38,287 bases of DNA, taken from IMG/VR virus record IMGVR_UViG_3300035670_000610, positions 1 through 38,287 of that record; one strand, written 5' to 3'. The translations under genes were made by a program, and so were the position numbers. Below are positions 1,967 through 22,152 of this stretch, one piece after another; position 1 is the first letter of the stretch; each line of letters opens with the position of its first letter. The stretch comes from a virus. The notes under the pieces were generated by a model. It had not been told where the DNA came from. It worked only from the letters and a program-made list of their open reading frames with translations, and ran no database searches.

Positions 1967-3703
1967 TCAGGTGGCGACGGCGAGCGTGTCGAGCTTGGCT
2001 TTCATGTGCATCACGGCTTCGGCCAGCGGATGCGCGCCGCTGGCAGCCTTCGCGGCGCTCGCGGCGGCCTCGCGGCGCTGCTGCTGAGCCTTCGCGGTCC
2101 CGGGCGGCGGCACGTTCGGGGTGAAGGCGGGTTTGAGGCCGGTGGTGCCGTTGACGGAATGCAGCCAGCCGAGTCCACCGCCCATGTAAGTCTTTTTCAT
2201 GCCGCTGCCGCCCGTGGCCTGGCCCACGGCATCACTGGCGTTTTTGAACGCGCCTGAACTGAAGGCGGCAGCCGTTTTGCCTTTGCCACCTGTGTCGAAA
2301 CCGTTGGCCTTTTGCCAGGATGATCCGGCCTTAAAACGCCCCAACTCTCCCGGCTTGAAGCCAAACTCCTTGGCGGCCTGGAGCGCGTCAAACTCCGCCA
2401 GCCCGCCAAACCCCGCGTTGGCTCCGCTCTTCGCGTAGCTGAAGCCCATGATCTTTTTGCGGCCGGCCTCGGCGCTGTCCTTGTCCGTCTTGGCTTTGCT
2501 CTGCGCCTTGTTCGCGGTTTTGGCGTCATCATCAGTGGTTGCGTTGAGCTTCTCTGCCCAGTTGGTCGTTTCCTGGAGGGCTTTAGTAGCCTCCGTTGCC
2601 GTTCCGATGATGTTTTGGAGCGCTTTAACGTGGGGCGTCTCATCCATCGGTTTGCCAGTGGTGATCGTCTGCCAGATCCCACGGACCATCTCCAAGTCCC
2701 CCATGATCGCAGCCGCCACCATGGAGCTCAGCTTCTCCAGTGAGCCCATGATAAGGCTCGGCAGGTTCCGGAAATGCTCCACGATCGCGTTGAAGGCGCG
2801 AATGCGGGCAATCATCATCACGTGATAAAAAGCCTCACCCACCTTCCCCTTCTCAATTGCTTTGGCGATCAGGGTGCTGGCGCTCCCTGTGATGCTGACG
2901 AGCTGAGTCAGATACCCCTTCACCGGCCCGTCATTGATCGGCTTGCCGATCTCGCGAAACACCGCGCCGATGTTGTCCTTCAGCGTGCTCCACAGGCCGA
3001 TGGTGGTCTTGCTCTGCTTCTCCATGCTGGATGCCCAGCGGCCGCCTTCGCCGGCGAGCTGCTGGAGGGCCTTTTGCATGTCGGAGAACCCCACCTTGCC
3101 CTCGCTCATGAGGTCGTTCAGGCCAGCGGTTGAAACGCTCAGCGCCTCGGCGAGCGATTGTTTGATCTCGCCCGCGCCGGCCTCCACGAATTGCTGCATG
3201 TCCTCGGCGTAGATCTTGCCCTGGCCAGCCATCTGTCCGTAAACGGTGGCGAGATTGCCGATGTCGGCCCCGGTGGCCGCGCTCACGTTGCCCAGCGCCA
3301 TGAGCTCGTCTTTGAGGGCTGCTGTGGGCACGCGGGCCGCCAGCAGCTTCTTTGCAGCCTCGGCGAGCTGCGGCAGCTCGAAGGGCGTCTGCGCACCCAT
3401 GGCTTGCAGCTCCGCCAGCGTGGCCTGGGCCTGCTCCATGGAGCCCGTAAGGGTCTCGAATTGAATCAGCGTCTGCTCGGCAGCGGCGGCCGACTTGACC
3501 GCGAATCCCGTGGCGGCAGCGGCCGCCGTGGCGAGCACGGTGACCATGCCGGCGACAGCGGCGGAGACCTTCAGGAACGCGCCCGACGACACTGAGCCCG
3601 CCTCTTTGCTGCCCGCGATGAATCGCCCCTGCTCATCACGCGCCTTCTTCATCGGCCCGGAAAATCCGTCCGACAGCTTGAGCATGTATTCGAGCGTGTT
3701 CAT
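1967..3703 (-). CDS. Tail tape measure protein
   Basis: 578 aa. It has the typical tape-measure domain: a segment like FETLTGS, then a helix, TPFELPQLAEAAKKLLA, and a repeated helical core through about residue 260. A hydrophobic Ala/Val-rich segment lies near residues 45-75. These features match the TP901/Mu-type tape measure family, which sets tail length and is ejected into the host. It is short for the family, predicting a short siphovirus tail. The stop codon lies in a tandem-repeat gap and the start is next to a GTTCGC array. Confidence 0.88.
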   Translation of the reverse strand: MNTLEYMLKLSDGFSGPMKKARDEQGRFIAGSKEAGSVSSGAFLKVSAAVAGMVTVLATAAAAATGFAVKSAAAAEQTLIQFETLTGSMEQAQATLAELQAMGAQTPFELPQLAEAAKKLLAARVPTAALKDELMALGNVSAATGADIGNLATVYGQMAGQGKIYAEDMQQFVEAGAGEIKQSLAEALSVSTAGLNDLMSEGKVGFSDMQKALQQLAGEGGRWASSMEKQSKTTIGLWSTLKDNIGAVFREIGKPINDGPVKGYLTQLVSITGSASTLIAKAIEKGKVGEAFYHVMMIARIRAFNAIVEHFRNLPSLIMGSLEKLSSMVAAAIMGDLEMVRGIWQTITTGKPMDETPHVKALQNIIGTATEATKALQETTNWAEKLNATTDDDAKTANKAQSKAKTDKDSAEAGRKKIMGFSYAKSGANAGFGGLAEFDALQAAKEFGFKPGELGRFKAGSSWQKANGFDTGGKGKTAAAFSSGAFKNASDAVGQATGGSGMKKTYMGGGLGWLHSVNGTTGLKPAFTPNVPPPGTAKAQQQRREAAASAAKAASGAHPLAEAVMHMKAKLDTLAVAT

Positions 3704-5564: not shown

Positions 5565-6527
5565 TCACAGCGCGTTGTCCGCGCCAGTGGAGCCGATGAT
5601 GAGCTGGGGGAGGCCGAAGCCCACAGCGGCACGCTGGTAGGCCTGGTAGCGGAAGACGTGGCGGTCGAACGCGTCCTTGTGCGTGTTCGGATCGTCTTGC
5701 GCGTAGAAGCGCGGGCTGGTCTCCGTCTGGTCGATGATCGCACGCACCGGCTCGCCCACGTTGACCACGAACCAGTAATCCTGGCGGGCGCTCGTGTTGA
5801 GGTGCTTGAACTCGATCAAGTCGGCATCGCCACGGTAGATGTTGCTCACCGCGATGTCGCTCGTTGTGCCAGCTTCGAGGATCGTCTCGGCATTGAGGAT
5901 CTTCTTGAAGGTCGTGGCCCACTTGCTGGAGCAGATGACCATGAGCTTGCTGCCCACGTTCATCGGCTCGCCGTTCGGGTCGAGGATGTAATTGAGCTTC
6001 TGCTTCGCCGCCTCCCAGGAGCCAGCGGAGGGCTTCTCCGTCATCTTGTTGTCGAAGGTGCCGGCGTCCAGCAGGCCGGGCAGATGCGGCTTGCTGTCGG
6101 CGAAGAAGTTCGTGCCGGTGTAATCCAGCGTGCTGAAGCCGTCGATGAGGAGCTGAGCCAGGAAGCGGTCCGGGCGACGACGCACAGCGTAGCCGAGCAT
6201 GGTGAACTTGTTGTTGAACTGCGCGGCCTCGCCACGCTCGATGGCGGCCTGGGGCACTTCGACGCTGGCTTCGAGCTCCTCGTTTTCGATCCGATGCTGG
6301 GCACGGGCGGTGACCTGCACCTTGATCTGGTCTTTGAAGCGCTTCATCACCGGCAGGGCGACCAGCATGTCATAGACGTTGACGGCGGCGGAGCTGGACT
6401 GCTTCTCGGCGATCAAGTCCGTGACGCTCTTCGCGCCTTCGGACTCGAAGCCTTTGAACATGACGGTTTTCCAGTCCTCGCGAAGGCGAGTCCGGGCGGC
6501 GGCGGAGTTGATGTCGATGGCGGGCAT
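5565..6527 (-). CDS. Major capsid protein, Mu gpT-like
   Basis: 320 aa. The opening AIDINSAAARTRLREDWKT and the body with YDMLVALPVMKRFKDQ, the NNKFTMLGYAVRRRPDRFLAQLL segment and the central TGTNFFADSKPHLPG loop match the Mu-like major head subunit family (gpT), which has an HK97-type fold. It follows the protease/scaffold and a decoration-like protein, the standard order. ATG 6527 is preceded by a CTAAGGG repeat rather than a Shine-Dalgarno sequence. Confidence 0.92.
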   Translation of the reverse strand: MPAIDINSAAARTRLREDWKTVMFKGFESEGAKSVTDLIAEKQSSSAAVNVYDMLVALPVMKRFKDQIKVQVTARAQHRIENEELEASVEVPQAAIERGEAAQFNNKFTMLGYAVRRRPDRFLAQLLIDGFSTLDYTGTNFFADSKPHLPGLLDAGTFDNKMTEKPSAGSWEAAKQKLNYILDPNGEPMNVGSKLMVICSSKWATTFKKILNAETILEAGTTSDIAVSNIYRGDADLIEFKHLNTSARQDYWFVVNVGEPVRAIIDQTETSPRFYAQDDPNTHKDAFDRHVFRYQAYQRAAVGFGLPQLIIGSTGADNAL

Positions 6528-7460: not shown

Positions 7461-7964
7461 TCAGCGGTTGGCGTATTTTTTGCGATCCTCGTCGGACACG
7501 CCGGTCATCTCGGAGACGGCTTTGGCTTCGGGAGCTTCGCTGTGCAGCGTGGAGAGCGGGATCACGCCTTCGAGCGTGCGGGCCGACATCGGCACGGTCA
7601 CGGGCAGCTCGGCGCAGAGCTTCTTCAGATCATCCAGCGCCATCGACTTGGCGATGCTTGGCACCTGCTTTCCCTCGCGCACGGCGGCGGCGATGATCTC
7701 GCCACGCTGGCTTTCGAGCTGCTGGGTGGTGAGGAGCTTCAGGGTCTCACCCTGCTCTTTGAGCGTGGCGGCCAGCAGCTTCAGCTCGTCACTCGTGCCG
7801 GCGGAAAGGGTCTTGTTTTTCTCCATCTCCGCCTTCGCGGCGGTGAGCTCCTTTTCACCCGCGCTCATCTTTTCAGTCAGAGCAGCCAGCACTTCGTCAG
7901 CGGTGGCAGTGGCGGCAAGGTCGAGCATCTCGGCGAGTTTGGCGATGAGTTGTTCGGGTGTCAT
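7461..7964 (-). CDS. Internal-start scaffold protein, Mu gpZ-like
   Basis: An in-frame ATG at 7964 opens MTPEQLIAKLAEMLD exactly where the scaffold domain of the protease gene begins. In Mu, scaffold Z is made from an internal start of gene I. Here the start follows a GTTCGC array and a Ser/Thr linker. The product would be 167 aa, highly helical, with two coiled-coil stretches. Separate expression is inferred from the Mu parallel. Confidence 0.5.
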   Translation of the reverse strand: MTPEQLIAKLAEMLDLAATATADEVLAALTEKMSAGEKELTAAKAEMEKNKTLSAGTSDELKLLAATLKEQGETLKLLTTQQLESQRGEIIAAAVREGKQVPSIAKSMALDDLKKLCAELPVTVPMSARTLEGVIPLSTLHSEAPEAKAVSEMTGVSDEDRKKYANR

Positions 7965-8513
7965 GGTGGAGGAGGTGGAGTTCGCGGTTCGCAGTTCGCG
8001 GTTCGCAGCGGTCGGAGTCTGCATGGATCCGGCGGTGGAGAGGAAGACAAGTCCGGGAGTTGCGCCATGACGGCAGAGGGCCACGCTGTGCAGGCCGATG
8101 ACCTCGTTGCGGTCGTTCACTTTCACGACAGGCGAGAGGTCTCCATAGTGGCCGCCAGCGGCGAAGGCTTTGCCCTCCGGCGTCCAGCTCGACATCACCA
8201 GGTAGATGCCCTCCCCGGCCACGAGCTGAAGCGTGCCATAGCCGGCGATCTTCACCGGCTCGCCCGCGTAGGTCGGAGAGCCTGGCACGCTGTTGTGCTC
8301 GAAGTCCAGCGCGATGCGGTCCCAGTTCTGCGCAGCATTGAACGCGGCGAGCTGGCGCATCGTCGTGTCATCGCAGATCACCACGCCCTTGGTCGTGGCA
8401 TGCTCGCCCCAGGCCAGCACAAGGATCTTCGGCGGCAGCCCCTGCTCGCCCTGGGCAGGATCGAATTGCGGGGCGTTGGCGCGGAGAGTGAGGAGTTCGA
8501 GCGGCTTGGACAT
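7461..8513 (-). CDS. Head maturation protease and scaffold, Mu gpI-like
   Basis: About 350 aa from ATG 8513. The TTG four codons upstream is less likely. The N-terminal domain carries DFEHN (D70, H73), the catalytic signature of Mu-type phage protease (peptidase family U35), followed by ALCRHGATPG. A linker at ~169-183 (ANRELRTANSTSS) is translated GTTCGC repeat. From residue 184 the protein is a Lys/Glu-rich coiled-coil scaffold. This is the Mu I/Z arrangement, in which the protease domain processes the scaffold during head assembly. Confidence 0.9.
   Translation of the reverse strand: MSKPLELLTLRANAPQFDPAQGEQGLPPKILVLAWGEHATTKGVVICDDTTMRQLAAFNAAQNWDRIALDFEHNSVPGSPTYAGEPVKIAGYGTLQLVAGEGIYLVMSSWTPEGKAFAAGGHYGDLSPVVKVNDRNEVIGLHSVALCRHGATPGLVFLSTAGSMQTPTAANRELRTANSTSSTMTPEQLIAKLAEMLDLAATATADEVLAALTEKMSAGEKELTAAKAEMEKNKTLSAGTSDELKLLAATLKEQGETLKLLTTQQLESQRGEIIAAAVREGKQVPSIAKSMALDDLKKLCAELPVTVPMSARTLEGVIPLSTLHSEAPEAKAVSEMTGVSDEDRKKYANR
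7979..8009. repeat. GTTCGCN repeat in the protease-scaffold linker
   Basis: Four heptamers GTTCGCN are read in frame as RELRTAN-type residues, and they lie exactly between two functional domains of one protein. Confidence 0.85.
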
Positions 8514-8518
8514 GGGCG

Positions 8519-8596
8519 GAGACAATCAGACAATGAGACCCTGAGACAATGAGACCCCGGCGGTTCCGTCTCGTTGTCCGCTTGTCTGATTGTCTC
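8519..8596. repeat. Tandem repeat forming a fold-back hairpin
   Basis: A 15-bp perfect inverted pair (GAGACAATCAGACAA at 8519-8533, complement at 8582-8596) surrounds further GAGACAAT/GTCTCGTT repeats that also pair imperfectly. It lies in the gap between the gpG-like and protease genes, so the leftward transcript would form a long stem-loop there. Confidence 0.75.
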
Positions 8597-9065: not shown

Positions 9066-9112
9066 TGGCGAGACTCGGAGACAGGGAGACCGGGAGACAG
9101 GGAGACCCGGAG
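9066..9112. repeat. GGAGACNN/GAGACAGG tandem repeat
   Basis: Five to six GGAGAC-based units fill the start region of the gpG-like gene, next to the end of the methyltransferase cassette. Confidence 0.8.
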
Positions 9113-9156
9113 ACTTGCGGCGAACGTCCGCTGCATTGAGCCTCGCCCAGGCTCAG

Positions 9157-9855
9157 TCAATGAGCTTCCTTGTTAGCCGCCTTGAGTCTCGCAACTATCG
9201 GGCGCGTCAGAAACTCAGAATAGGCCGGCGGAATTGCCTGCGAGAGTTCGTTGCCAGTCATCCAGTCTATCCCCATCGCCTCCGGCCCGACGTATCGCCC
9301 AATGTCACCGACCACAGTCACGAAGCCGCCAGCGTCCCAGTGCCCGCGGCGGTTCTTCTTGCGGCGATTCACTGCTACCGGATGTTTCGGGTGTGGCAGC
9401 GGATGAGGTTTCAGCGGGACATTGCTCTCGAAGATTCGATGCCGGTAGGCGCGCAGCCCGAACATCACGGCGCACAGCATCACGTCCACGCGAAGCGGGG
9501 CGCCCACGACATTTTCGAGGATGTATGGCCCGCCCCACGCTTCGAGTTTTGCCCGTGTCCGCTCGATGAAGCATTCGTAGTGCTTGCCCACACGAGCGCG
9601 CAGCGCGGTGTGTTCCTGACACGGCGGGCTTGCCCACACGAAATCGAAGCCAGACAGGTCGGCTTCCAGGGCGTCTCCGAGATGGAATACGAAAGGGAAG
9701 TTCTTTTGCGGTTTGATGTCCCAGCCTTCCACGTCGAAGCCAGCGCGGTGGAGTCCGACCGCTGCCCCGCCAGCCCCGCAAAAGAGGTCTGCGCAACGAA
9801 GGCGGCTAACCATACGCTGCACCGAATGCCGGGATTGCGTCTCAGGCGAGTTCAT
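9157..9855 (-). CDS. C5-cytosine DNA methyltransferase
   Basis: 232 aa. Motif I is DLFCGAGGAAVGLHRAGF (residues ~24-40), motif IV is SPPCQ with catalytic C79, motif VI is LENV (~113-116), a RHR variant of motif VIII follows, and the end carries motif IX/X-like ELSQAIPPAYSEF. It is shorter than typical Dcm-type enzymes (usually over 300 aa), with a small target-recognition region. No cognate nuclease is visible, so it is probably an orphan anti-restriction methylase protecting phage DNA. It lies inside a cargo cassette in the head operon. Confidence 0.93.
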   Translation of the reverse strand: MNSPETQSRHSVQRMVSRLRCADLFCGAGGAAVGLHRAGFDVEGWDIKPQKNFPFVFHLGDALEADLSGFDFVWASPPCQEHTALRARVGKHYECFIERTRAKLEAWGGPYILENVVGAPLRVDVMLCAVMFGLRAYRHRIFESNVPLKPHPLPHPKHPVAVNRRKKNRRGHWDAGGFVTVVGDIGRYVGPEAMGIDWMTGNELSQAIPPAYSEFLTRPIVARLKAANKEAH

Positions 9856-9894
9856 GGCGTTTCTGTCCCGGCATCGGTGAGCTTGTTGTTCGCC

Positions 9895-10143
9895 TCAATC
9901 ATAAATTGCTTCGTAGTGCTCCACTTCTTTCCTCCGTCGCTGAAGGCTGAAAAGTCGATCTTCGTAGAATCCTTTCACTTTGCCACGCATGACCGGATCG
10001 TCACTCAACAGACAGTCCTCCATGATCTCCAAGCACTCTTCTTCTGTGCATCTGCCAGCGATCTCGCGAAAGGCGAACAAATTATCGCACTCAACCGCAT
10101 GAGCGGTCGAGTTGCTGGGGAAGTTGAAGTCAGGGGCGCTCAT
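9895..10143 (-). CDS. Small hypothetical protein (82 aa) in the methylase cassette
   Basis: Overlaps the end of the upstream gene by 14 nt. It is acidic and helical, with three cysteines near EECLEIMEDCLL. Local GC is lower than in the surrounding head genes, consistent with acquired cargo. No family recognised. Confidence 0.6.
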   Translation of the reverse strand: MSAPDFNFPSNSTAHAVECDNLFAFREIAGRCTEEECLEIMEDCLLSDDPVMRGKVKGFYEDRLFSLQRRRKEVEHYEAIYD

Positions 10144-10837
10144 GCGGTGAGTGGATTTGGGTGTTCGCCATAAATGCGATGCGTATCAGCTCATCGCGGA
10201 ACTCGAGCGGTGTGGCGTTCGCCGCTCGATGGCCTGTTGAGTCGCGCCACTTGTCCATGCCGCCTCTCCAGTCCTGATTCTTTGAGATTGTGCCTCGGCT
10301 GTCTGGCGTGTGCCCCCAGCGTAGTGCCGGCAGCTTTTCGGCGGGGACTCCATAGACGTAGAGCCACGTTGCTTTCTTGACCGGATGCCCGTAGCGGCCT
10401 TGCTCGATGTAGCACGAGTATCCGCCGCACGTTCCCGCCGTCCATCCTTGGCGCTTTGTGTCCGGCCTTGGCAGGCCGTAGTGTGCCCAGGCCTTCGAGA
10501 AGGCGGGGTGCTCGATTACGCCGCCATTGGCGCGGACGGCTTTCAGCGCAGCCTCGAAGCACCCGCCATCGTCTCCTACTTTCAGGCCGTGCCGCACTTC
10601 ACAGAAGCGAGCCAGACGCGACCAGCGAGAGCATGGCGGATGCGCCACGACAGGCAGTGTTCCGTCATAGCGGCGAGCGTCCCGACTTTCGGGCCATGCG
10701 TCCACCGTGGGCAGTTTGGAGTAGCAGCCATCGGCCTGCACGAACAACGCAGCCACCAATGGCGAACAAGGCGCTGCACCCAATGACTGCCCCGCGAAGC
10801 CGTCCGGTGATTCGATAGTCTGGAGAGGGGCAGTCAT
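10130..10837 (-). CDS. Phage PPC-motif protein, methyltransferase-like (235 aa)
   Basis: Start ATG 10837, coupled by ATGA to the upstream frame. It carries VAHPPCSRWSRL, then an Asn/Gly-rich segment with GGVIEHPA, then KKATWLYVYG. I recall this order from a phage family of unknown activity. PPC plus EHP resembles motifs IV and VI of C5-methyltransferases, but the SAM motif DLFCGxGG is not evident. It sits directly before a true methylase. A DNA-modification role is inference. Confidence 0.75.
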   Translation of the reverse strand: MTAPLQTIESPDGFAGQSLGAAPCSPLVAALFVQADGCYSKLPTVDAWPESRDARRYDGTLPVVAHPPCSRWSRLARFCEVRHGLKVGDDGGCFEAALKAVRANGGVIEHPAFSKAWAHYGLPRPDTKRQGWTAGTCGGYSCYIEQGRYGHPVKKATWLYVYGVPAEKLPALRWGHTPDSRGTISKNQDWRGGMDKWRDSTGHRAANATPLEFRDELIRIAFMANTQIHSPHERP

Positions 10838-11076
10838 GGGTGAGCTTTGTCGTTCGCCAGACCTGCTTTCTCCGCGAGCCATGCGGTTCCACATGCGACG
10901 GCCTCCGCTTCGGACTTCCACTCGCCGGGCAGCGCGACACCTGCCGAGAAGGCAGTGACTACCACGTCGAGTCGTTCGGCGCTGATTGTGACTTTCGCCG
11001 TGACGCCTTTTTTCAGGAGCCACTTGGCGCGATAAGACGCTCTCAGGAAACGAAGTCTTGTTTCGCCGTGCCATAG
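10834..11076 (-). CDS. Coding frame without a standard start (up to 80 codons)
   Basis: Directly after the TAG of the upstream 59-aa gene, the same frame stays open for 80 codons with protein-like content (KKGVTAKVTISAERLDVVV, GEWKSEAEAVA). It ends in ATGA overlapping the next start. No ATG or GTG exists near its beginning. Options are readthrough of TAG 11079-11077, a CTG start near 11046, a GTG at 10965, or a frameshift from ATG 11074 in another frame. No family recognised. Confidence 0.5.
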   Translation of the reverse strand, partial: LWHGETRLRFLRASYRAKWLLKKGVTAKVTISAERLDVVVTAFSAGVALPGEWKSEAEAVACGTAWLAEKAGLANDKAHP

Positions 11077-11256
11077 CTAGACGTTCGCCTCAAACTGAAT
11101 GCCGTTGTCGCCCTCAATGGGTTGAGTGTGCTCGATCTCGCTCAGCCAGATGAGCGGCGGGATGCCTTGGGGGAAGGCTTTGCAGCGAGGCGTGGAGGCG
11201 GGCGCGTCGGGGTCGAGGTGGATGCAGTCGAGGCAGAGAGGGGGGAGTGTGGTCAT
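11077..11256 (-). CDS. Small conserved phage protein with CxxC-H-C motif (59 aa)
   Basis: Starts MTTLPPLCLDCIHL and continues CKAFPQGIPPLIWLSEIEH, PIEGDNGIQFE. This pattern (CxxCxH, then CxAFPxGIP, then GDxGIxFE) recurs, from memory, as a small protein near structural genes in many phages. The Cys/His set suggests a structural zinc site. It follows MuF after a GGGACAGT repeat. Role unknown. Confidence 0.8.
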   Translation of the reverse strand: MTTLPPLCLDCIHLDPDAPASTPRCKAFPQGIPPLIWLSEIEHTQPIEGDNGIQFEANV

Positions 11257-11257
11257 G

Positions 11258-11286
11258 GTAGGACAGTGGGACAGTGGGACAGTGGG
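11258..11286. repeat. GGGACAGT short tandem repeat
   Basis: Three to four GGGACAGT units fill the gap between the 59-aa gene and the MuF-like gene stop. The same word recurs inside the coding region at 26572-26600. Confidence 0.85.
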
Positions 11287-12969
11287 TTAGACCGTCGCGG
11301 GGAATTGTGAGTTGTATGCCCGCTCGATAAGGCGGCCGATCTCGACGGCGAGTGGGCGGGGCGTGGGGGCGTGGCGGTATTCGGTCCAGGCCTCGGCGAT
11401 CATCTCAGCGATGTTGGTGGTGCCGTAGATGCTCAGTTGATCGGCGGCCTCGGCGCGGCTGAATTGGGATACGCGATTCCGCCACAGGTCGAGCAATTCC
11501 GGCTGGCGACGCAGACCGAGCAGGGCGTCCATGGCGTGCCCCAGTTCGTGCGTGGTGATGTGCGCTCCGGGCGGCGTGCCCTGGATGGTCTTGGGCCACC
11601 AGCCGCTCGTCACCGCGCGATCCATGGCCGCGATCTCGGCCGCGATGGGGTTCGCGCCCTTCTTGTTCATGACGAGGATGTCCTTGCCCTTCCCCCGGGC
11701 GGAGTAGAACGCGGAGGCCTTGGGCATGCGCGTGATCTTCCGGCTCAGGTAACGGTCGATCATCTCGCGCTTGCGGCGGTCGATCTCATCCTGGGGCCAG
11801 CTTGAGTTGCTCCAGTAGAGGTCCGCGTAGTGCTGCGCCTCCGCCAGGAAGCGTTCACGGATATAATCGCCCTGCGCCGCGTTGGTGCCGATGAAGTCGA
11901 AGCGTTGCGCCAGCGCGGGGAAGTCGCGCAGATGAGCCAGGACCACGTCGTTCATCTGCTGTGCGACCGCGAGATCCGCGCCCTTGAAATTCACCGTGGC
12001 ATCCGCCGCCGCGCCGGCCGCGCGGATCTCCGCCTGGAGGCTCTGCGAGAGGCTGGCAATCGTCGGCTTGAGCGCCTTCACGGCTGCTTTCTTCACCGCC
12101 TTCTTGGCGCTGGCCTTGCCTTCACCGATCCACTGGCTCACGGTCACCCCTTTGGAGATCTCCGTCTTCTTCGCCCAGGCCTCAAAGGCGGCCAGCACTT
12201 CCGGCTGGTCGTCGTAGCGGGCCTTGATCAGCTTCCAATCGTGCTGGATGTTGCCAGGAATGGACCACGGCGCATCGGCCCACGTGGGCGTGCGGTTGAG
12301 CGGCTTGCCATCCGGCAGGCGTTGATTTTTATCGATCAGCGTCGCCTCGCGGTCGGTGAACACTTCCGGCTTCGCGATCTGTGTCGGGAGCAAATGGCCA
12401 TCCTTCTGACTCTCCGCCCTCTGCTCTCCGCTCTGTGCCATCATGCGCTCCATGCCCGCCTTCGTGAGCGGCACCACCAGGCAGCGGCAGCCCCAGTCCC
12501 ACGGCGGGAAGATGCGCTGCCAGATGTCGTGGCCCGCCGGGAAGATTTTCCCATTCAGCGCGGCGTGGCTGGGCCTCACGTTGCCATCGCCATGCGTCTT
12601 GTACTGCCAATAAGGGAAGACATCGATCTGCTGCATCAGGCGGCGGTAACGGCTGGCGGCGTAGGCGCGAAAGACATGCGTGCGCAGCAGCAGCTCCGCG
12701 CGGCGCTGGCTGGCCTTGCCGCCGAGGTCATCGACCAGCTCCGCCGCGATGGCCCGGCGTGCCTTCTCCCAGGTCTGTGCCCCCGCTGGCACGGCGGCGA
12801 TCACGTCGCGCACCTTGGCCATTTGGTCTCCGACATCCAGGCCGGTGATGGTGAACGCATAGGCCCGCAGCTCCGGGAGCATCTCATCCATCACCTCGCG
12901 GGACACGAGCGGCAGCTCCGCGATGCGGCGGACGGCTTCTTCGTGGGGCAGTGGGGTGAAGGTGAACAT
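11287..12969 (-). CDS. MuF-like head protein with C-terminal zincin domain
   Basis: 560 aa. Residues ~85-170 form the MuF domain (RTHVFRAYAASRYRRLM, DGNVRPSHAALNGK, PPWDWGCRC), a minor head protein that binds the portal. A linker at ~178-190 (QSGEQRAESQ) is translated tandem repeat. The C-terminal half ends in a metallopeptidase signature: HELGH at 474-478 and a likely third ligand in NIAEMIAEAW (E522 or E526). This is the architecture of MuF polymorphic toxins, where an enzyme domain rides on a virion protein. No immunity gene is obvious. Confidence 0.88.
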   Translation of the reverse strand: MFTFTPLPHEEAVRRIAELPLVSREVMDEMLPELRAYAFTITGLDVGDQMAKVRDVIAAVPAGAQTWEKARRAIAAELVDDLGGKASQRRAELLLRTHVFRAYAASRYRRLMQQIDVFPYWQYKTHGDGNVRPSHAALNGKIFPAGHDIWQRIFPPWDWGCRCLVVPLTKAGMERMMAQSGEQRAESQKDGHLLPTQIAKPEVFTDREATLIDKNQRLPDGKPLNRTPTWADAPWSIPGNIQHDWKLIKARYDDQPEVLAAFEAWAKKTEISKGVTVSQWIGEGKASAKKAVKKAAVKALKPTIASLSQSLQAEIRAAGAAADATVNFKGADLAVAQQMNDVVLAHLRDFPALAQRFDFIGTNAAQGDYIRERFLAEAQHYADLYWSNSSWPQDEIDRRKREMIDRYLSRKITRMPKASAFYSARGKGKDILVMNKKGANPIAAEIAAMDRAVTSGWWPKTIQGTPPGAHITTHELGHAMDALLGLRRQPELLDLWRNRVSQFSRAEAADQLSIYGTTNIAEMIAEAWTEYRHAPTPRPLAVEIGRLIERAYNSQFPATV

Positions 12970-14203: not shown

Positions 14204-14309
14204 GGGGAGACTTGGAGACTTGGAGGCGAGGAGACGGGGAGACTTGGAGAGCGGAGAGTCAGTGCGTCAGTGCGTCAGTGAGTCAGTGAGTCAGTGAGTC
14301 AGTGAGTCA
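14204..14309. repeat. Two adjoining tandem arrays (GGAGACTT then GTCAGTGA)
   Basis: A GGAGACTT array (14205-14250) passes into a GTCAGTGC/GTCAGTGA array (14255-14309). The last unit supplies the TGA stop of the next leftward gene. There is no other content in this gap. Confidence 0.85.
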
Positions 14310-15029
14310 GAAGGGTTCGTTCTCGGGGTCTTTGACGCGTTGGCCGGGGCGGGGGCGGAGGATGTATTCGCGAGAGCGGGAGACGGGCGCGGGAGCGGCG
14401 CCGGCGGCGGGCGGAGTCACTGAGGCAGGGAGACTTTGAGACTTGGAGACGGGGAGACTGGCGGGCTTGGCATCTCCTTGCCTGATGGTCTCCCGGTCTC
14501 CTTGTCTTTGCTTTTTGTTCCGGTTGTCGGGATCGCCGAGACCGAGCTTGGCGCGGCAGCGGTTGACGATGGTGTCATGGAGCTGCTTGAGCTGCCAGGT
14601 GCGCAGGCTGCGGATGTCGGCCCCCTTGAAGCGCTGCTGCAAAATAACAAAGAGGTAACCGTCTTTGAAGCCGGCCTTGGCCATCCAGTGGCGCAGATCG
14701 CGCACGTATTCACAACCTGGCGCGCGGTCGCAGTCGGCATTCTCAATCACCTTCACCGTGCGCTTGGTGGCGCGGCCTTTCCAAAACGGGCCCGCCAGCG
14801 CCTCGAAGTGCTGCATCACGAGGTTGTACTCGTCATTCACCATGTCCTTGAAGCTGCACACGCGCTGCGTGGCGAGCGCGACCTGCTGATGACGCCAGAA
14901 TTCATTCTGCGCGGACTTCGACGCGTTGGCCATGTCCGGCGGGATCTCAAATGCCCCGACCATGCGCTGGTGCTTCACCGCTGCGGTGGCGGCGATGCCG
15001 AGCTGGATGAGTTGGTCTTTGGACATCAT
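14307..15029 (-). CDS. Early/middle protein, possibly GemA-like (240 aa)
   Basis: Helical protein with SLRTWQLKQLHDTIVNRC in the middle, weakly reminiscent of the GemA/gp16 (DUF1018) pattern of Mu-like phages. GEMA modulates host gene expression and replication in Mu. The C-terminal ~65 residues (QRQGDRETIRQGD, SLPVSKSQSLPASV) are translated GAGAC-type tandem repeats and Pro/Ala-rich sequence. The GemA assignment is tentative. Confidence 0.6.
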   Translation of the reverse strand: MMSKDQLIQLGIAATAAVKHQRMVGAFEIPPDMANASKSAQNEFWRHQQVALATQRVCSFKDMVNDEYNLVMQHFEALAGPFWKGRATKRTVKVIENADCDRAPGCEYVRDLRHWMAKAGFKDGYLFVILQQRFKGADIRSLRTWQLKQLHDTIVNRCRAKLGLGDPDNRNKKQRQGDRETIRQGDAKPASLPVSKSQSLPASVTPPAAGAAPAPVSRSREYILRPRPGQRVKDPENEPF

Positions 15030-15854: not shown

Positions 15855-16862
15855 TCAGCGGCGCTTTTGCTCGGTGGCGATGGCGGTGAAGAAGGCTTCT
15901 TTCGTGCTGGCCTCGCCTTTGTTGACCTCCCGCAGGAAGCGTGCGGTGGCCTTGGCGACGAATTTGAGGCAGCCGTTGCCACGGGCGGTTTCGCGCAGGC
16001 GGGCGGCGACGGCGTCGATCTCGGCAGCGGTGAGCACCACGCCCCGGGCGAGCAGGAAGGCGCGGATGTCGTCGTGTCCAAGCACAAGCTGGATGCGCTC
16101 CGCGAGGCGGTTGCCAATGAGCTGCTTCACCTCCATGTAGGTGTCCCGCGAGCTCGTGAGCCGGTCCCAGAGCTGCGGAATCGCGGTGGCGACGATGATC
16201 GTCGGCGTCAGGTTGATGAGGGCCTTCAGCGTGTTGAGGCCTTGAGGGCAAAGGTGGTGAGCCTCTTCAACAACCAGGCAGCGGCGCTGGCCTTTGAGCT
16301 TCGTGATGACCTCCTTCATCAGCGCGTCACGGCGCGCAGGCAGATCCTTGATGCCCAGCTCCTCCGCGATGGCCCGCAGCAGCGGCACGGCGGTATTGCG
16401 GTTGTCCTTCTTCCACACATCGAGCGCCTCGACCACGACCATGAGGCCGCCGTAGGGCTTGCCGAGCATCACCTGGATGGCACTGGTCTTGCCCACACCG
16501 GACTCGCCCTGGATCAGAATGAAGCGGTCATTGCCCTTCGTGAGGCGCGTTTCGAGATACGAGCGGCACAGTTCGACCGGGCCGGTCAAGGTGGGGATGA
16601 GGCTGTCATCAGCGGCGCTGTCGGCATCCTTGATCTGGCGCCAGACGTGCGCGTAGCTGTCGCTCCACTTGTCGAGGTCGAGCTGCGCATAGTCCGCACC
16701 AATGATCTTGTTGTAGGTGCGGTCTGTGCCGAGCTCCGGGTATTGACGCAGGAGCGCGGCCTTCGTCAGGCCGAAATCGGCGCGGTAGGTTTCGATGTTT
16801 GACGCGGCCTCGCTCAACTGGCGGGCGGTGTCTGTGTCAGGGGCGGGAGGGGTGGCATTCAT
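15855..16862 (-). CDS. MuB-like transposition AAA ATPase
   Basis: 335 aa. Walker A is GESGVGKT at ~119-126 and Walker B is CLVVEEAHH at ~195-203, followed by an AAA core and a C-terminal helical region. The N-terminal ~90 residues look like the small DNA-binding domain of MuB (312 aa in Mu). MuB binds target DNA, stimulates MuA and mediates target immunity. Unlike Mu, eight small genes separate it from the transposase gene, though both lie in the same leftward operon. Confidence 0.9.
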   Translation of the reverse strand: MNATPPAPDTDTARQLSEAASNIETYRADFGLTKAALLRQYPELGTDRTYNKIIGADYAQLDLDKWSDSYAHVWRQIKDADSAADDSLIPTLTGPVELCRSYLETRLTKGNDRFILIQGESGVGKTSAIQVMLGKPYGGLMVVVEALDVWKKDNRNTAVPLLRAIAEELGIKDLPARRDALMKEVITKLKGQRRCLVVEEAHHLCPQGLNTLKALINLTPTIIVATAIPQLWDRLTSSRDTYMEVKQLIGNRLAERIQLVLGHDDIRAFLLARGVVLTAAEIDAVAARLRETARGNGCLKFVAKATARFLREVNKGEASTKEAFFTAIATEQKRR

Positions 16863-19895: not shown

Positions 19896-21866
19896 TCACT
19901 CCAGGGAGGCTTCGAGGGCTTCGAGGGCTTCGAGGGCGGCGAGGGCGGCGGAGCGTGAATGGTCTTGAGCGTGGCGGGTGGGGCCGTGCGCAGTCGCATA
20001 AGCAGCGGTCTGGCCGGGGCGTCCCCGGTCGGCCTCGCCGATGCCCGCGCGGGGATCAGCCGCGCTGCGGAGGTCGCCGCCACGCTCAAGGGATTCGTCG
20101 GCAAACACGGAGGTTTGCCCTCCGACCGGCGGGGCGCCGCTGTCGAGGTTCAGCGGCGCGAGCGCGTCGCCCTCCGAAGCCGCAAGGCGAAGGAGGGGAT
20201 CGGCGCTGCCTTTGCGGATCGTGCGCACCTGGCCGCGTGACACGACGCTGGACACGCGCACGTGCTTCTTCGCCGCCTTGATGATGCGCGTCTCCGCCCG
20301 CACGGCGCTCTGGGTCTTGCGGCGGCCGTCGAAGTCGGCGGTCTCCGGCGCATCGCTCCACTGTGGAGCATGCGCGGCGTGCGGCAGGATGCCCAGCGGC
20401 AGGCCGATGGGGAAGCGGCGCGGATTCTGCGGATGGTCCGGATGCAGACCATTGAAGACATGGCAGCCGAGATCCGGGCGGGCCGGGTGGAAGGCGGCGA
20501 GCACACGCCAGCCGTGCGGCAGCCAGGCGTTCCAGTCCCACTGCGGCGCGAAGCCCTCGGCGGTGAAGAGGAAGGGCAGCTCGTAACCTTTGGCGCGCAG
20601 GCTCACGTGCGCATTGCGCACGGTGACAGCGGCCTTCACCGGCAGGAAGCGCCAGCGATGTTCAGCAGGAAGATCGCGACGCACTGCCGATGAGAACAAT
20701 TCAGCAGGCACGACCTTCTTCGCCCCGAACAAATGCGGGCGGCGCTTGGCTTCGTGGTTGAAGCGGTCCAGCACATCCGCCGAGATGTCCGCACGGGCGG
20801 CGGCGGTCGGGAATTTGGCGATGGCGCTGACGTTGCCATTCAGCGCGAGACGATGCAGGCGCGCATTGGCTTCGTGTTCGCCACGCTCGCGGCCGATGTC
20901 GAGCGTCTCATGGGCCGCGAGGTTCTGGCGATGATTGAAGCTGCCTTCGATGGTGCCCTTTTGCCGCGATTTGAAGGCCTGCATCACGCCGATGGGGCCG
21001 CCAGCGGAGATGTCGATGCCACCCCAGCGCAGCGAGGCGCACTCCGGCGTGTGCCACCAGGCTTTCGGCAGCGGGGAGCCAAACCAGAAGTTGTTGTCCC
21101 AGGGGCCGCGCTCAATGCGGGCGCGCAGCGGCAGGCCATGGGCGTCGATGAGTTCGAGCAGGAAGTCGGCCTGGTCTTCGATGCGGTAGCCGTCGCTGTC
21201 GCGGCTCACGGCGCGCATGCCGAGGTAGAAGGATGAGTACACGTCGATGGCCTTCAGCGTCTGTCGGTTCACGCGCGGCCTGCCGTCCTCGTCGATCTCC
21301 AGCCAGGGCGTGTTCTCGGATTCGTCATCAAACTCCCAGAGAGCGTTGGCGAAGAGCGGCTGGCTGGCGCCGGACTCATCCTTGTAGATGAGACCACGCG
21401 GGCGGGCGGGCTCGACTGCGGCCAAGGCTTTCGGCCCGTGGAAGGCCGCGCGCTCCTCATCGGTGAGGATGCAGGCGCGCATAAACCAGCGCGGCCAGAC
21501 TTCATCCGTGCGCTTCTCAGCGGCTCCATCGAAGACGGCGGCCAGCTTCGCGTGCGTTTCCGCCGTGCAGCAGTCCGAACGCAAAAGCAGATCCGCCGCG
21601 AGACGGCGGCTGCGCTTCGTGAGCATGCCCAGCTTCAGCACCGCGATCTCGTCCGGCGTGAGCGCGTGGTCATCACGCGGTCCCGTGGCGTAGTTTTTGG
21701 CCACGGCGGCCTCGGCATCGCCGGAGTCCTTCAGCTTCGCCAGGCGGCGGCACAGCGTCGGCTCGCTCACGCCGTAGCGCAGGGCGAGACTCTTCTGAGT
21801 CCAGCCCTGGGTGAGGAGCGTGGCGGCTTCGTGCAGTTGCATGGCGGTGAGGTCGGGCATGAGCAT
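19896..21866 (-). CDS. MuA-like DDE transposase
   Basis: About 656 aa (MuA has 663). I choose ATG 21866; the open frame above it is translated repeat. Residues ~20-45 form an HTH (GWTQKSLALRYGVSEPTLCRRL). The catalytic core has WEFDD (D180/181), WDNNF (D257) and GTIEGSFNHRQNL (E307), the expected DDE triad of rve/MuA transposases. The C-terminal ~70 residues are low complexity, ending in repeat-encoded ALEALEALEASLE. It carries out replicative transposition and integration of the phage. Confidence 0.9.
   Translation of the reverse strand: MLMPDLTAMQLHEAATLLTQGWTQKSLALRYGVSEPTLCRRLAKLKDSGDAEAAVAKNYATGPRDDHALTPDEIAVLKLGMLTKRSRRLAADLLLRSDCCTAETHAKLAAVFDGAAEKRTDEVWPRWFMRACILTDEERAAFHGPKALAAVEPARPRGLIYKDESGASQPLFANALWEFDDESENTPWLEIDEDGRPRVNRQTLKAIDVYSSFYLGMRAVSRDSDGYRIEDQADFLLELIDAHGLPLRARIERGPWDNNFWFGSPLPKAWWHTPECASLRWGGIDISAGGPIGVMQAFKSRQKGTIEGSFNHRQNLAAHETLDIGRERGEHEANARLHRLALNGNVSAIAKFPTAAARADISADVLDRFNHEAKRRPHLFGAKKVVPAELFSSAVRRDLPAEHRWRFLPVKAAVTVRNAHVSLRAKGYELPFLFTAEGFAPQWDWNAWLPHGWRVLAAFHPARPDLGCHVFNGLHPDHPQNPRRFPIGLPLGILPHAAHAPQWSDAPETADFDGRRKTQSAVRAETRIIKAAKKHVRVSSVVSRGQVRTIRKGSADPLLRLAASEGDALAPLNLDSGAPPVGGQTSVFADESLERGGDLRSAADPRAGIGEADRGRPGQTAAYATAHGPTRHAQDHSRSAALAALEALEALEASLE
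20098..20123. repeat. Half copy of the 54-bp coding palindrome
   Basis: TCGGCAAACACGGAGG through TTGCCCTCC, matching the right half of the elements at 5434 and 17450. It lies in frame in the transposase C-terminal region (QTSVFADES). Confidence 0.7.
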
Positions 21867-21896
21867 GCGGCGAGTGACGGGCGAGAGCGGGCGCGA

Positions 21897-21910
21897 TGAA
21901 ATGGGTCTAG
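21897..21910 (+). promoter_or_regulatory. Internal copy of the phage end site, upstream of the transposase
   Basis: TGAAATGGGTCTAG is identical over 14 bases to the left terminus (135-148) and lies 30 bp upstream of the chosen transposase start. After the site comes AGCGGGAC, also present just inside the left end (181-187). It could be an operator for transposase autoregulation, an internal enhancer-like site, or a relic of an older phage end. Confidence 0.65.
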
Positions 21911-22152
21911 CGGGACTTCGAGCGAAGAGCGGAGGGCGAAGAGCGGAGGGCTTTCTTTGAGCCACGCGGGCGGCTCACATTGATGCCGGACTTGCCGCCG
22001 GTGAGCTTCTTCTCGGCATCGCGGAGCGCAGCGGCTGCGGCAAAATTTTGGTCGATGATCGCCGCCTCCTTCAAGCAACGCAGCGTGACGATGCGCTCGG
22101 AGACAAGCAGCGGCTTGAGCGCCTTCGTCAGGGAGTTCATGGTGATTTTCAC
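21907..22152 (-). CDS. Small protein between ParB-like and transposase (81 aa)
   Basis: GTG 22152 overlaps the ParB-like stop as GTGA; ATG 22140 is an alternative. The middle (QNFAAAAALRDAEKKL) resembles the UVR motif of UvrB/UvrC-binding helices. The C-terminus (ALRSSPSALRSKSR) is translated AGAGCGGAGGGCGA repeat. Its stop overlaps the internal end site. Function unknown; the UVR likeness is weak. Confidence 0.6.
   Translation of the reverse strand: MKITMNSLTKALKPLLVSERIVTLRCLKEAAIIDQNFAAAAALRDAEKKLTGGKSGINVSRPRGSKKALRSSPSALRSKSR

What the first reader, a model, noticed from the sequence alone, without database searches (positions are those of the whole stretch)
11287..12969. MuF head protein fused to a zincin (HELGH) domain
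The C-terminal ~190 residues carry HELGH plus a downstream NIAEMIAEAW glutamate, a metallopeptidase signature, behind an intact MuF domain. MuF polymorphic toxins are known to deliver C-terminal enzymes with virions. A zincin here could be injected and act on host proteins or rival phages.
Basis: partly seen in the sequence, partly recalled or inferred. Interest (0 to 1): 0.75.

Follow-up and report, generated by a model that had tools for sequence, protein, structure and literature searches.

The report
Phage head protein carrying exchangeable protease
A Mu-like phage's minor head protein ends in an intact zinc-protease domain of the anthrax-lethal-factor/PPEP fold, which related phages swap for other enzymes together with a small partner gene; it is a new example of a known class of virion-borne effectors, and a pair of already cultured, nearly identical phages that differ mainly in this cassette makes its role directly testable.

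Summary
On the minus strand, 12969-11287 encodes a 560-aa protein with a MuF domain (residues 72-165) and a C-terminal zincin: HELGH 474-478, Tyr515, Glu522. Sixty distinct relatives keep the catalytic residues. AlphaFold2 gives a confident model (pLDDT 89) whose best PDB matches are lethal factor (Z 11.7) and Pro-Pro endopeptidases (Z about 9). The family profile finds lethal factor by sequence (E 5.5e-7).

The C-terminal half is an exchangeable cassette. Two relatives with 77-80% identical N-termini carry a JAMM-like domain or a different zincin. DNA identity breaks at about 12.1 kb and resumes at 9.1 kb. A 59-aa gene (11256-11077) follows the zincin gene. Its family accompanies zincin, JAMM-like and ADP-ribosyltransferase cassettes, so it is not a zincin-specific immunity gene.

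Best explanation: the protein is loaded at the portal, enters the host with the DNA and cleaves a host protein. Delivery, substrate and the small gene's role are inferred. MuF-metallopeptidase toxins were already reported (Jamet 2017), so this is a new member of a known kind. Cultured lytic Flavobacterium phages lotta8-2 and pippi8-1 are about 99% identical genome-wide, except for swapping exactly this cassette plus its small gene.

The parts
11287..12969 (-). MuF minor head protein with C-terminal zincin, 560 aa
   Evidence: open frame; Pfam MuF E 1.2e-17; PHROG 220 minor head protein/DNA pilot E 8e-42, PHROG 324 head morphogenesis matching the C-terminus
12475..12756 (-). MuF domain (residues 72-165)
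   Evidence: PF04233
11290..12021 (-). zincin domain of the lethal factor/PPEP (ATLF, M34-like) fold, residues 317-560
   Evidence: AF2 pLDDT 89, pTM 0.85; VIA-align Z 11.7 lethal factor, 9.4 PPEP-3; profile vs PDB E 5.5e-7
11536..11550 (-). HELGH, residues 474-478: two predicted zinc ligands and the catalytic Glu475
   Evidence: invariant in 60 distinct relatives, partly by selection
11425..11427 (-). Tyr515, candidate transition-state tyrosine 7 residues before the ligand Glu
   Evidence: 59 of 60 relatives
11404..11406 (-). Glu522 (AEMIAEAW), predicted third zinc ligand
   Evidence: 58 of 60 relatives
11077..11256 (-). 59-aa companion gene, Cys/His-rich (CxxCxH...C.AFP.GIP..I..H..P...GD.GI.FE), PHROG 33375
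   Evidence: same family follows zincin-bearing MuF genes in at least 14 other loci, often overlapping the stop codon; invariant C8, C11, C25, H43
9119..12111 (-). exchanged segment: zincin half of the MuF gene, companion gene, ORF 10130-11074 (PHROG 12600) and DNA methyltransferase gene 9157-9855
   Evidence: blastn identity to L098 and L097 stops at 12111/12173 and resumes at 9118/9099
7461..8525 (-). separate head maturation protease (context: the zincin is not needed for that task)
   Evidence: PHROG 328 E 2e-25

Best explanation
The gene encodes a virion-borne effector of a temperate Mu-like phage. The MuF half docks to the portal and brings the protein into the capsid in few copies (inferred from SPP1 gp7). 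On infection it travels with the DNA into the host cytoplasm (inferred). The C-terminal zinc endopeptidase, of the lethal factor/PPEP fold (shown by model and profile), then cleaves one or a few host proteins, most likely to help takeover, defeat a defence or tip the lysis-lysogeny choice (inferred). The zincin is one of several exchangeable warheads at this position (shown by comparison). The 59-aa gene downstream is a companion that moves with the cassette and most likely restrains or escorts the warhead in the producing cell (inferred).
For: MuF domain; zincin fold and lethal-factor/PPEP relationship; conserved catalytic set and purifying selection; related zincins ride on other portal-neighbourhood carriers, with Pfam hits to MuF 38, Phage_min_cap2 6, VG15 3 and Portal_Mu 2 among 54 ORFs; warhead exchange in close relatives with sharp DNA boundaries; the same swap in cultured lytic phages; a separate head maturation protease in the same genome; SPP1 gp7 is portal-targeted into the procapsid and supports initiation of infection (PMC6316719); MuF cassettes with tested antibacterial activity exist (Bxa, PMC11699363).
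Against: No experiment shows that this protein, or to my knowledge any MuF zincin, is in the virion, injected, active or toxic. The same position in most of the 10 closest N-terminal relatives carries a peptidase-like motif, which could also hint at a processing role. The companion family is not specific to zincins.
Confidence: 0.64

Rival explanations
1. The zincin is a self-processing peptidase: it trims the MuF protein or neighbouring head proteins during assembly or after entry, and is not an effector against the host.
For: Iyer et al. 2017 argue that many phage zincins process their own polyproteins, with phage P1 DdrB as the example. Many alternative cassettes at this position are also peptidase-like.
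Against: The zincin is the last domain, with no passenger to release beyond it. A separate head maturation protease exists. Some cassettes at the same position show neither peptidase motif (L101, L103, L106) and some are ADP-ribosyltransferases in other carriers. Flavobacterium phage FPSV-S1 has a 253-aa MuF without any such domain.
Confidence: 0.16
2. The zincin acts in the envelope during DNA entry (for example on a periplasmic or membrane protein), as an entry aid and not a cytoplasmic effector.
For: SPP1 gp7 loss reduces infectivity to about 25% (PMC6316719); PPEP relatives are secreted peptidases (from general knowledge).
Against: Cassettes of the same companion-linked group include ADP-ribosyltransferases, which need NAD. 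No signal or membrane segment was looked for in the domain.
Confidence: 0.1
3. The zincin is an antibacterial toxin used by lysogens against competitors, and the small gene is its immunity protein (the Jamet 2017 weapon model).
For: Small gene directly downstream, as in 89% of MuF toxins (PMC5576092); the window is a Mu-like, probably temperate phage; Bxa precedent with immunity proteins.
Against: The same architecture occurs in lotta8-1, whose genus was judged capable of lytic replication only (PMC7077304), where a lysogen weapon makes little sense. The companion family also follows JAMM-like and ADP-ribosyltransferase cassettes.
Confidence: 0.1

Closest known systems
MuF polymorphic toxins (Jamet et al. 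2017, PMC5576092; Zhang et al. 2012, PMC3482391)
   Same: N-terminal MuF domain, variable C-terminal enzyme, small downstream gene, probably temperate phage; 20% of their 191 MuF toxins carry a metallopeptidase.
   Different: They found toxin cassettes over-represented in Firmicutes and only in temperate phages; this one is in a Mu-like phage of unassigned host, and a lytic-phage example was found here. The small partner is shared across enzyme classes.
ATLF / M34-like zinc peptidases: anthrax lethal factor catalytic domain and Pro-Pro endopeptidases (PPEP-1, -2, -3)
   Same: Fold, HExxH, downstream Glu ligand and a Tyr 7 residues before it.
   Different: About 15% identity; the window protein scores no Pfam ATLF hit of its own (6 of 54 relatives do); virion carrier in place of a secretion signal; substrate unknown.
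Zincin-like MPTases of phage polyvalent proteins (Iyer et al. 2017, PMC5512222)
   Same: HExxH with an Asp three residues later (D481 here), in virion-associated phage proteins.
   Different: Single warhead at the C-terminus of one carrier domain, not a multi-domain polyprotein.
Bxa of Bacteroides stercoris (PMC11699363)
   Same: MuF N-terminus with exchangeable warhead and adjacent small gene(s).
   Different: Warhead is an ADP-ribosyltransferase; immunity tested there, not here.

Membership tests
MuF polymorphic toxin | N-terminal MuF domain | tested here: met
   PF04233 E 1.2e-17, residues 72-165
MuF polymorphic toxin | exchangeable C-terminal enzyme domain behind a conserved N-terminus | tested here: met
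   L097 and L098 (80% and 77% identical N-terminus) carry other domains; DNA breakpoints
MuF polymorphic toxin | small gene directly downstream | tested here: met
   11077-11256, 30 bases after the stop
MuF polymorphic toxin | downstream gene is a specific immunity protein | tested here: inconclusive
   family shared by zincin, JAMM-like and ADP-ribosyltransferase cassettes, although subfamilies cluster by cassette type (9 and 7 changes on the tree against 23 and 20 in shuffles; few columns)
MuF polymorphic toxin | warhead also found on other delivery systems | tested here: inconclusive
   relatives ride on other virion carriers (Phage_min_cap2, VG15, Portal_Mu); non-phage toxin systems were not examined
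MuF polymorphic toxin | toxicity and delivery | not testable with these tools
   needs expression and infection experiments
ATLF / M34-like peptidase | HExxH plus downstream Glu ligand and Tyr | tested here: met
   H474, E475, H478, Y515, E522 conserved
ATLF / M34-like peptidase | fold | tested here: met
   VIA-align Z 11.7, rmsd 3.6, 170 residues; PPEP-3 Z 9.4; Foldseek alone is weak, E 0.07-0.1
ATLF / M34-like peptidase | sequence membership by profile | tested here: met
   family profile vs PDB lethal factor E 5.5e-7; the window protein alone gives only E 0.1 and no Pfam ATLF hit
ATLF / M34-like peptidase | zinc-dependent endopeptidase activity | not testable with these tools
   needs a biochemical assay

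The most novel reading that the evidence does not exclude
The Cys/His-rich 55-75-aa companion family is a single promiscuous partner (antidote or packaging escort) for virion-borne effectors of three unrelated enzyme folds (lethal-factor-like zincin, JAMM-like, ADP-ribosyltransferase), and effector plus companion are exchanged as a unit even between near-identical lytic phages, meaning these cassettes serve early host takeover or counter-defence and are not mainly lysogen weapons.
Probability: 0.33. Interest if true: 0.74.

Novelty: new member of a known kind. Interest (0 to 1): 0.52.

Why it matters
MuF cassettes are common in phages, but their injection, targets and the role of the small downstream gene are largely untested. 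Two cultured lytic phages, lotta8-2 and pippi8-1, align over their whole genomes at about 99% identity except for this cassette plus its small gene, and both grow on one host, so the effect of the warhead can be compared almost cleanly. The shared companion family gives a handle for finding further virion effectors by genome neighbourhood.

Tried and rejected
Single-sequence search of solved structures gave only lethal factor at E 0.1, so a family profile was built. Pfam and NCBIfam see only MuF in the window protein. Foldseek against PDB gave no match at E under 0.001, so the fold claim rests on VIA-align and the profile search. The genome-collection scan gave only 5 Firmicutes MAG loci and did not identify the host. 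The idea that the small gene is a zincin-specific immunity gene was rejected after its neighbours were listed: 33 zincin, 23 JAMM-like (19 by strict motif, 4 by looser reading), 3 ADP-ribosyltransferase and 3 other, of 62 distinct; this sample is the 80 loci most similar to zincin-linked members out of 343, so proportions are biased. The companion's model (pLDDT 88) has no significant fold match in PDB. A search for relatives of the pippi8-1 warhead in viral contigs found none. Homology between pippi8-1 gp029 and the companions of similar zincins (L099, L102, L104) could not be shown. The 'structural protein' label of lotta8-1 gp028 is by sequence similarity, not mass spectrometry.

Full report
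What is there. The frame at 11287-12969 lies on the minus strand and encodes 560 aa. Residues 72-165 are a MuF domain (E 1.2e-17) and PHROGs label the protein minor head protein/DNA pilot. The surrounding genome is a Mu-like transposable phage: transposase-like ORF 19896-21965, transposition protein B-like 15855-16862, GemA-like 14307-15029, head protease 7461-8525, major head protein 5565-6527 and tape measure 1967-3703, all minus strand, with the portal on the plus strand at the right end next to a likely terminase, whose only support is a weak Pfam match. The record is an IMG/VR virus contig without end repeats.

The zincin is real. HELGH occupies residues 474-478 and the downstream helix is AEMIAEAW 521-528. 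A shuffle of the protein gives the HExxH...E..AE combination in 1 of 10,000. A scan of viral contigs returned 79 loci and a genome scan 5. In 60 distinct domains the two His, the Glu and Asp481 are invariant, Tyr515 is kept in 59 and Glu522 in 58, with the caveat that the scan patterns, and the motif filter applied afterwards, included parts of these motifs. A few relatives are split or truncated frames (L034, L045, L096, L088). dN/dS between moderately diverged zincin pairs, where it could be computed, is about 0.05-0.2, so the domain is maintained.

Fold and family. AlphaFold2 on 56 sequences gives pLDDT 89 and pTM 0.85. VIA-align ranks anthrax lethal factor first (Z 11.7, 170 residues, 3.6 A), then Pro-Pro endopeptidases (Z about 9) and Certhrax (Z 8.8). 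Foldseek alone puts the same proteins on top but at E 0.07-0.1. The family profile matches lethal factor by sequence at E 5.5e-7, and 6 of 54 relatives score Pfam ATLF at E up to 0.001. In the viral library the best matches are phage proteins called 'lethal factor' or MuF-like minor capsid protein. The Tyr-to-Glu spacing of 7 matches what I recall for lethal factor and PPEPs. This is a statement about fold and catalysis; nothing suggests action on animals, and the setting is a phage of bacteria.

It is an exchangeable cassette. The N-terminal 284 residues recur at 80% and 77% identity in L097 and L098, but L098 ends in a JAMM-like motif (HNHPAGGPPSLGD) and L097 in a different zincin (HEITH). 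More distant N-terminal relatives end in further HExxH types (L099, L100, L102, L104), a JAMM-like motif (L105) or domains without either motif, which I read tentatively as kinase-like (L101, L103) and acetyltransferase-like (L106); Pfam names none of these C-terminal parts securely. DNA identity to L098 (74-82%) stops at 12111 and resumes at 9118; to L097 it stops at 12173 and resumes at 9099. The exchanged segment therefore includes the small gene, ORF 10130-11074 and a DNA methyltransferase gene. The zincin family also rides on Phage_min_cap2, VG15 and Mu-type portal carriers.

The small gene. 11077-11256 encodes 59 aa with invariant Cys8, Cys11, Cys25 and His43. The same family follows zincin MuF genes in many loci; other zincin lineages have other small genes. 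Searching with this family and looking upstream shows 33 zincins, 23 JAMM-like domains, 3 ADP-ribosyltransferases and 3 others among 62 distinct neighbours; Pfam finds MuF in 36 of 63 upstream ORFs and ADP-ribosyltransferase families in several. On a tree of the small proteins the zincin and JAMM labels cluster far more than in shuffles (9 against 23.4 changes, 7 against 19.9), but with only 58 columns and little branch support. So the gene is a companion of several virion-effector cassettes, with subtypes that track the cassette, and not a plain zincin antidote.

A natural test system. Flavobacterium phages lotta8-1, lotta8-2 and pippi8-1 infect the same host strain. lotta8-1 gp028 is a MuF protein whose C-terminus matches the zincin profile (E 1e-16) and is followed by a companion of the family described above. 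pippi8-1 has the same first 259 residues, then a different zincin (HEIGH) and an unrelated 70-aa gene. Whole-genome comparison of lotta8-2 with pippi8-1 gives two blocks, 99.7% and 98.7% identical, that cover everything except this cassette. The authors found no lysogeny genes in pippiphages and considered them capable of lytic replication only (PMC7077304). Another Winoviridae phage, FPSV-S1, has a 253-aa MuF without the extension, so the extension is dispensable for being a phage.

Mechanism. SPP1 gp7, the best studied MuF protein, is brought into the procapsid by the portal, and virions lacking it are only about 25% infectious (PMC6316719). By analogy the window protein would be packaged in few copies and enter with the DNA, and the zincin would cut a host protein. 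Fold, catalytic residues, exchange and the companion gene are shown by computation here; packaging, injection, activity, substrate and the companion's job are inferred. A self-processing role, argued for other phage zincins by Iyer et al., remains the main rival.

Novelty. Jamet et al. reported MuF proteins with metallopeptidase cassettes in 20% of their 191 toxins, and Zhang et al. and Iyer et al. described lethal-factor-like and polyvalent zincins. The window protein is a new member of that kind. I found no paper that describes the cross-class companion family or the lotta/pippi cassette swap, but the library searched holds only open-licence papers.

Noticed in passing
34974-38181 (+) against 190-23216 (-): The portal gene (and a likely terminase gene beside it) sits at the right end on the opposite strand, far from the MuF and capsid genes. 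In relatives G001 and G010 the portal is likewise at a contig end, and in G001 the MuF gene is on the opposite strand, so this unusual order looks real.
   Followed up: partly
9157-9855 and 10130-11074 (-): A DNA methyltransferase gene and an ORF matching PHROG 12600 (unknown) lie inside the exchanged segment, absent from both close relatives at that place.
   Followed up: partly
L195 5001-6823, L196 5125-6853 (MN812205, MN812203): Near-identical cultured lytic Flavobacterium phages that differ mainly in the MuF C-terminus plus the next gene; deposited as plain structural and hypothetical proteins.
   Followed up: yes
L116, L123, L140, L160 and others: RadC-like JAMM motifs (HNHP...S..D) at the C-terminus of virion-associated (MuF or portal) proteins, each followed by a companion of the same small-protein family.
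   Followed up: partly
L042, L039, L073, L075, L081, L084, L087; L063, L065, L021, L019: Other zincin MuF lineages have their own short downstream families (FV.EPGNWHLKPGAP type; ISSAxGPA.DQAE.D.W type), so several companion families exist.
   Followed up: no
Gordonia phages such as ChisanaKitsune gp23: The zincin C-terminus also matches proteins annotated as HNH endonuclease in Gordonia phages, suggesting a further carrier.
   Followed up: no
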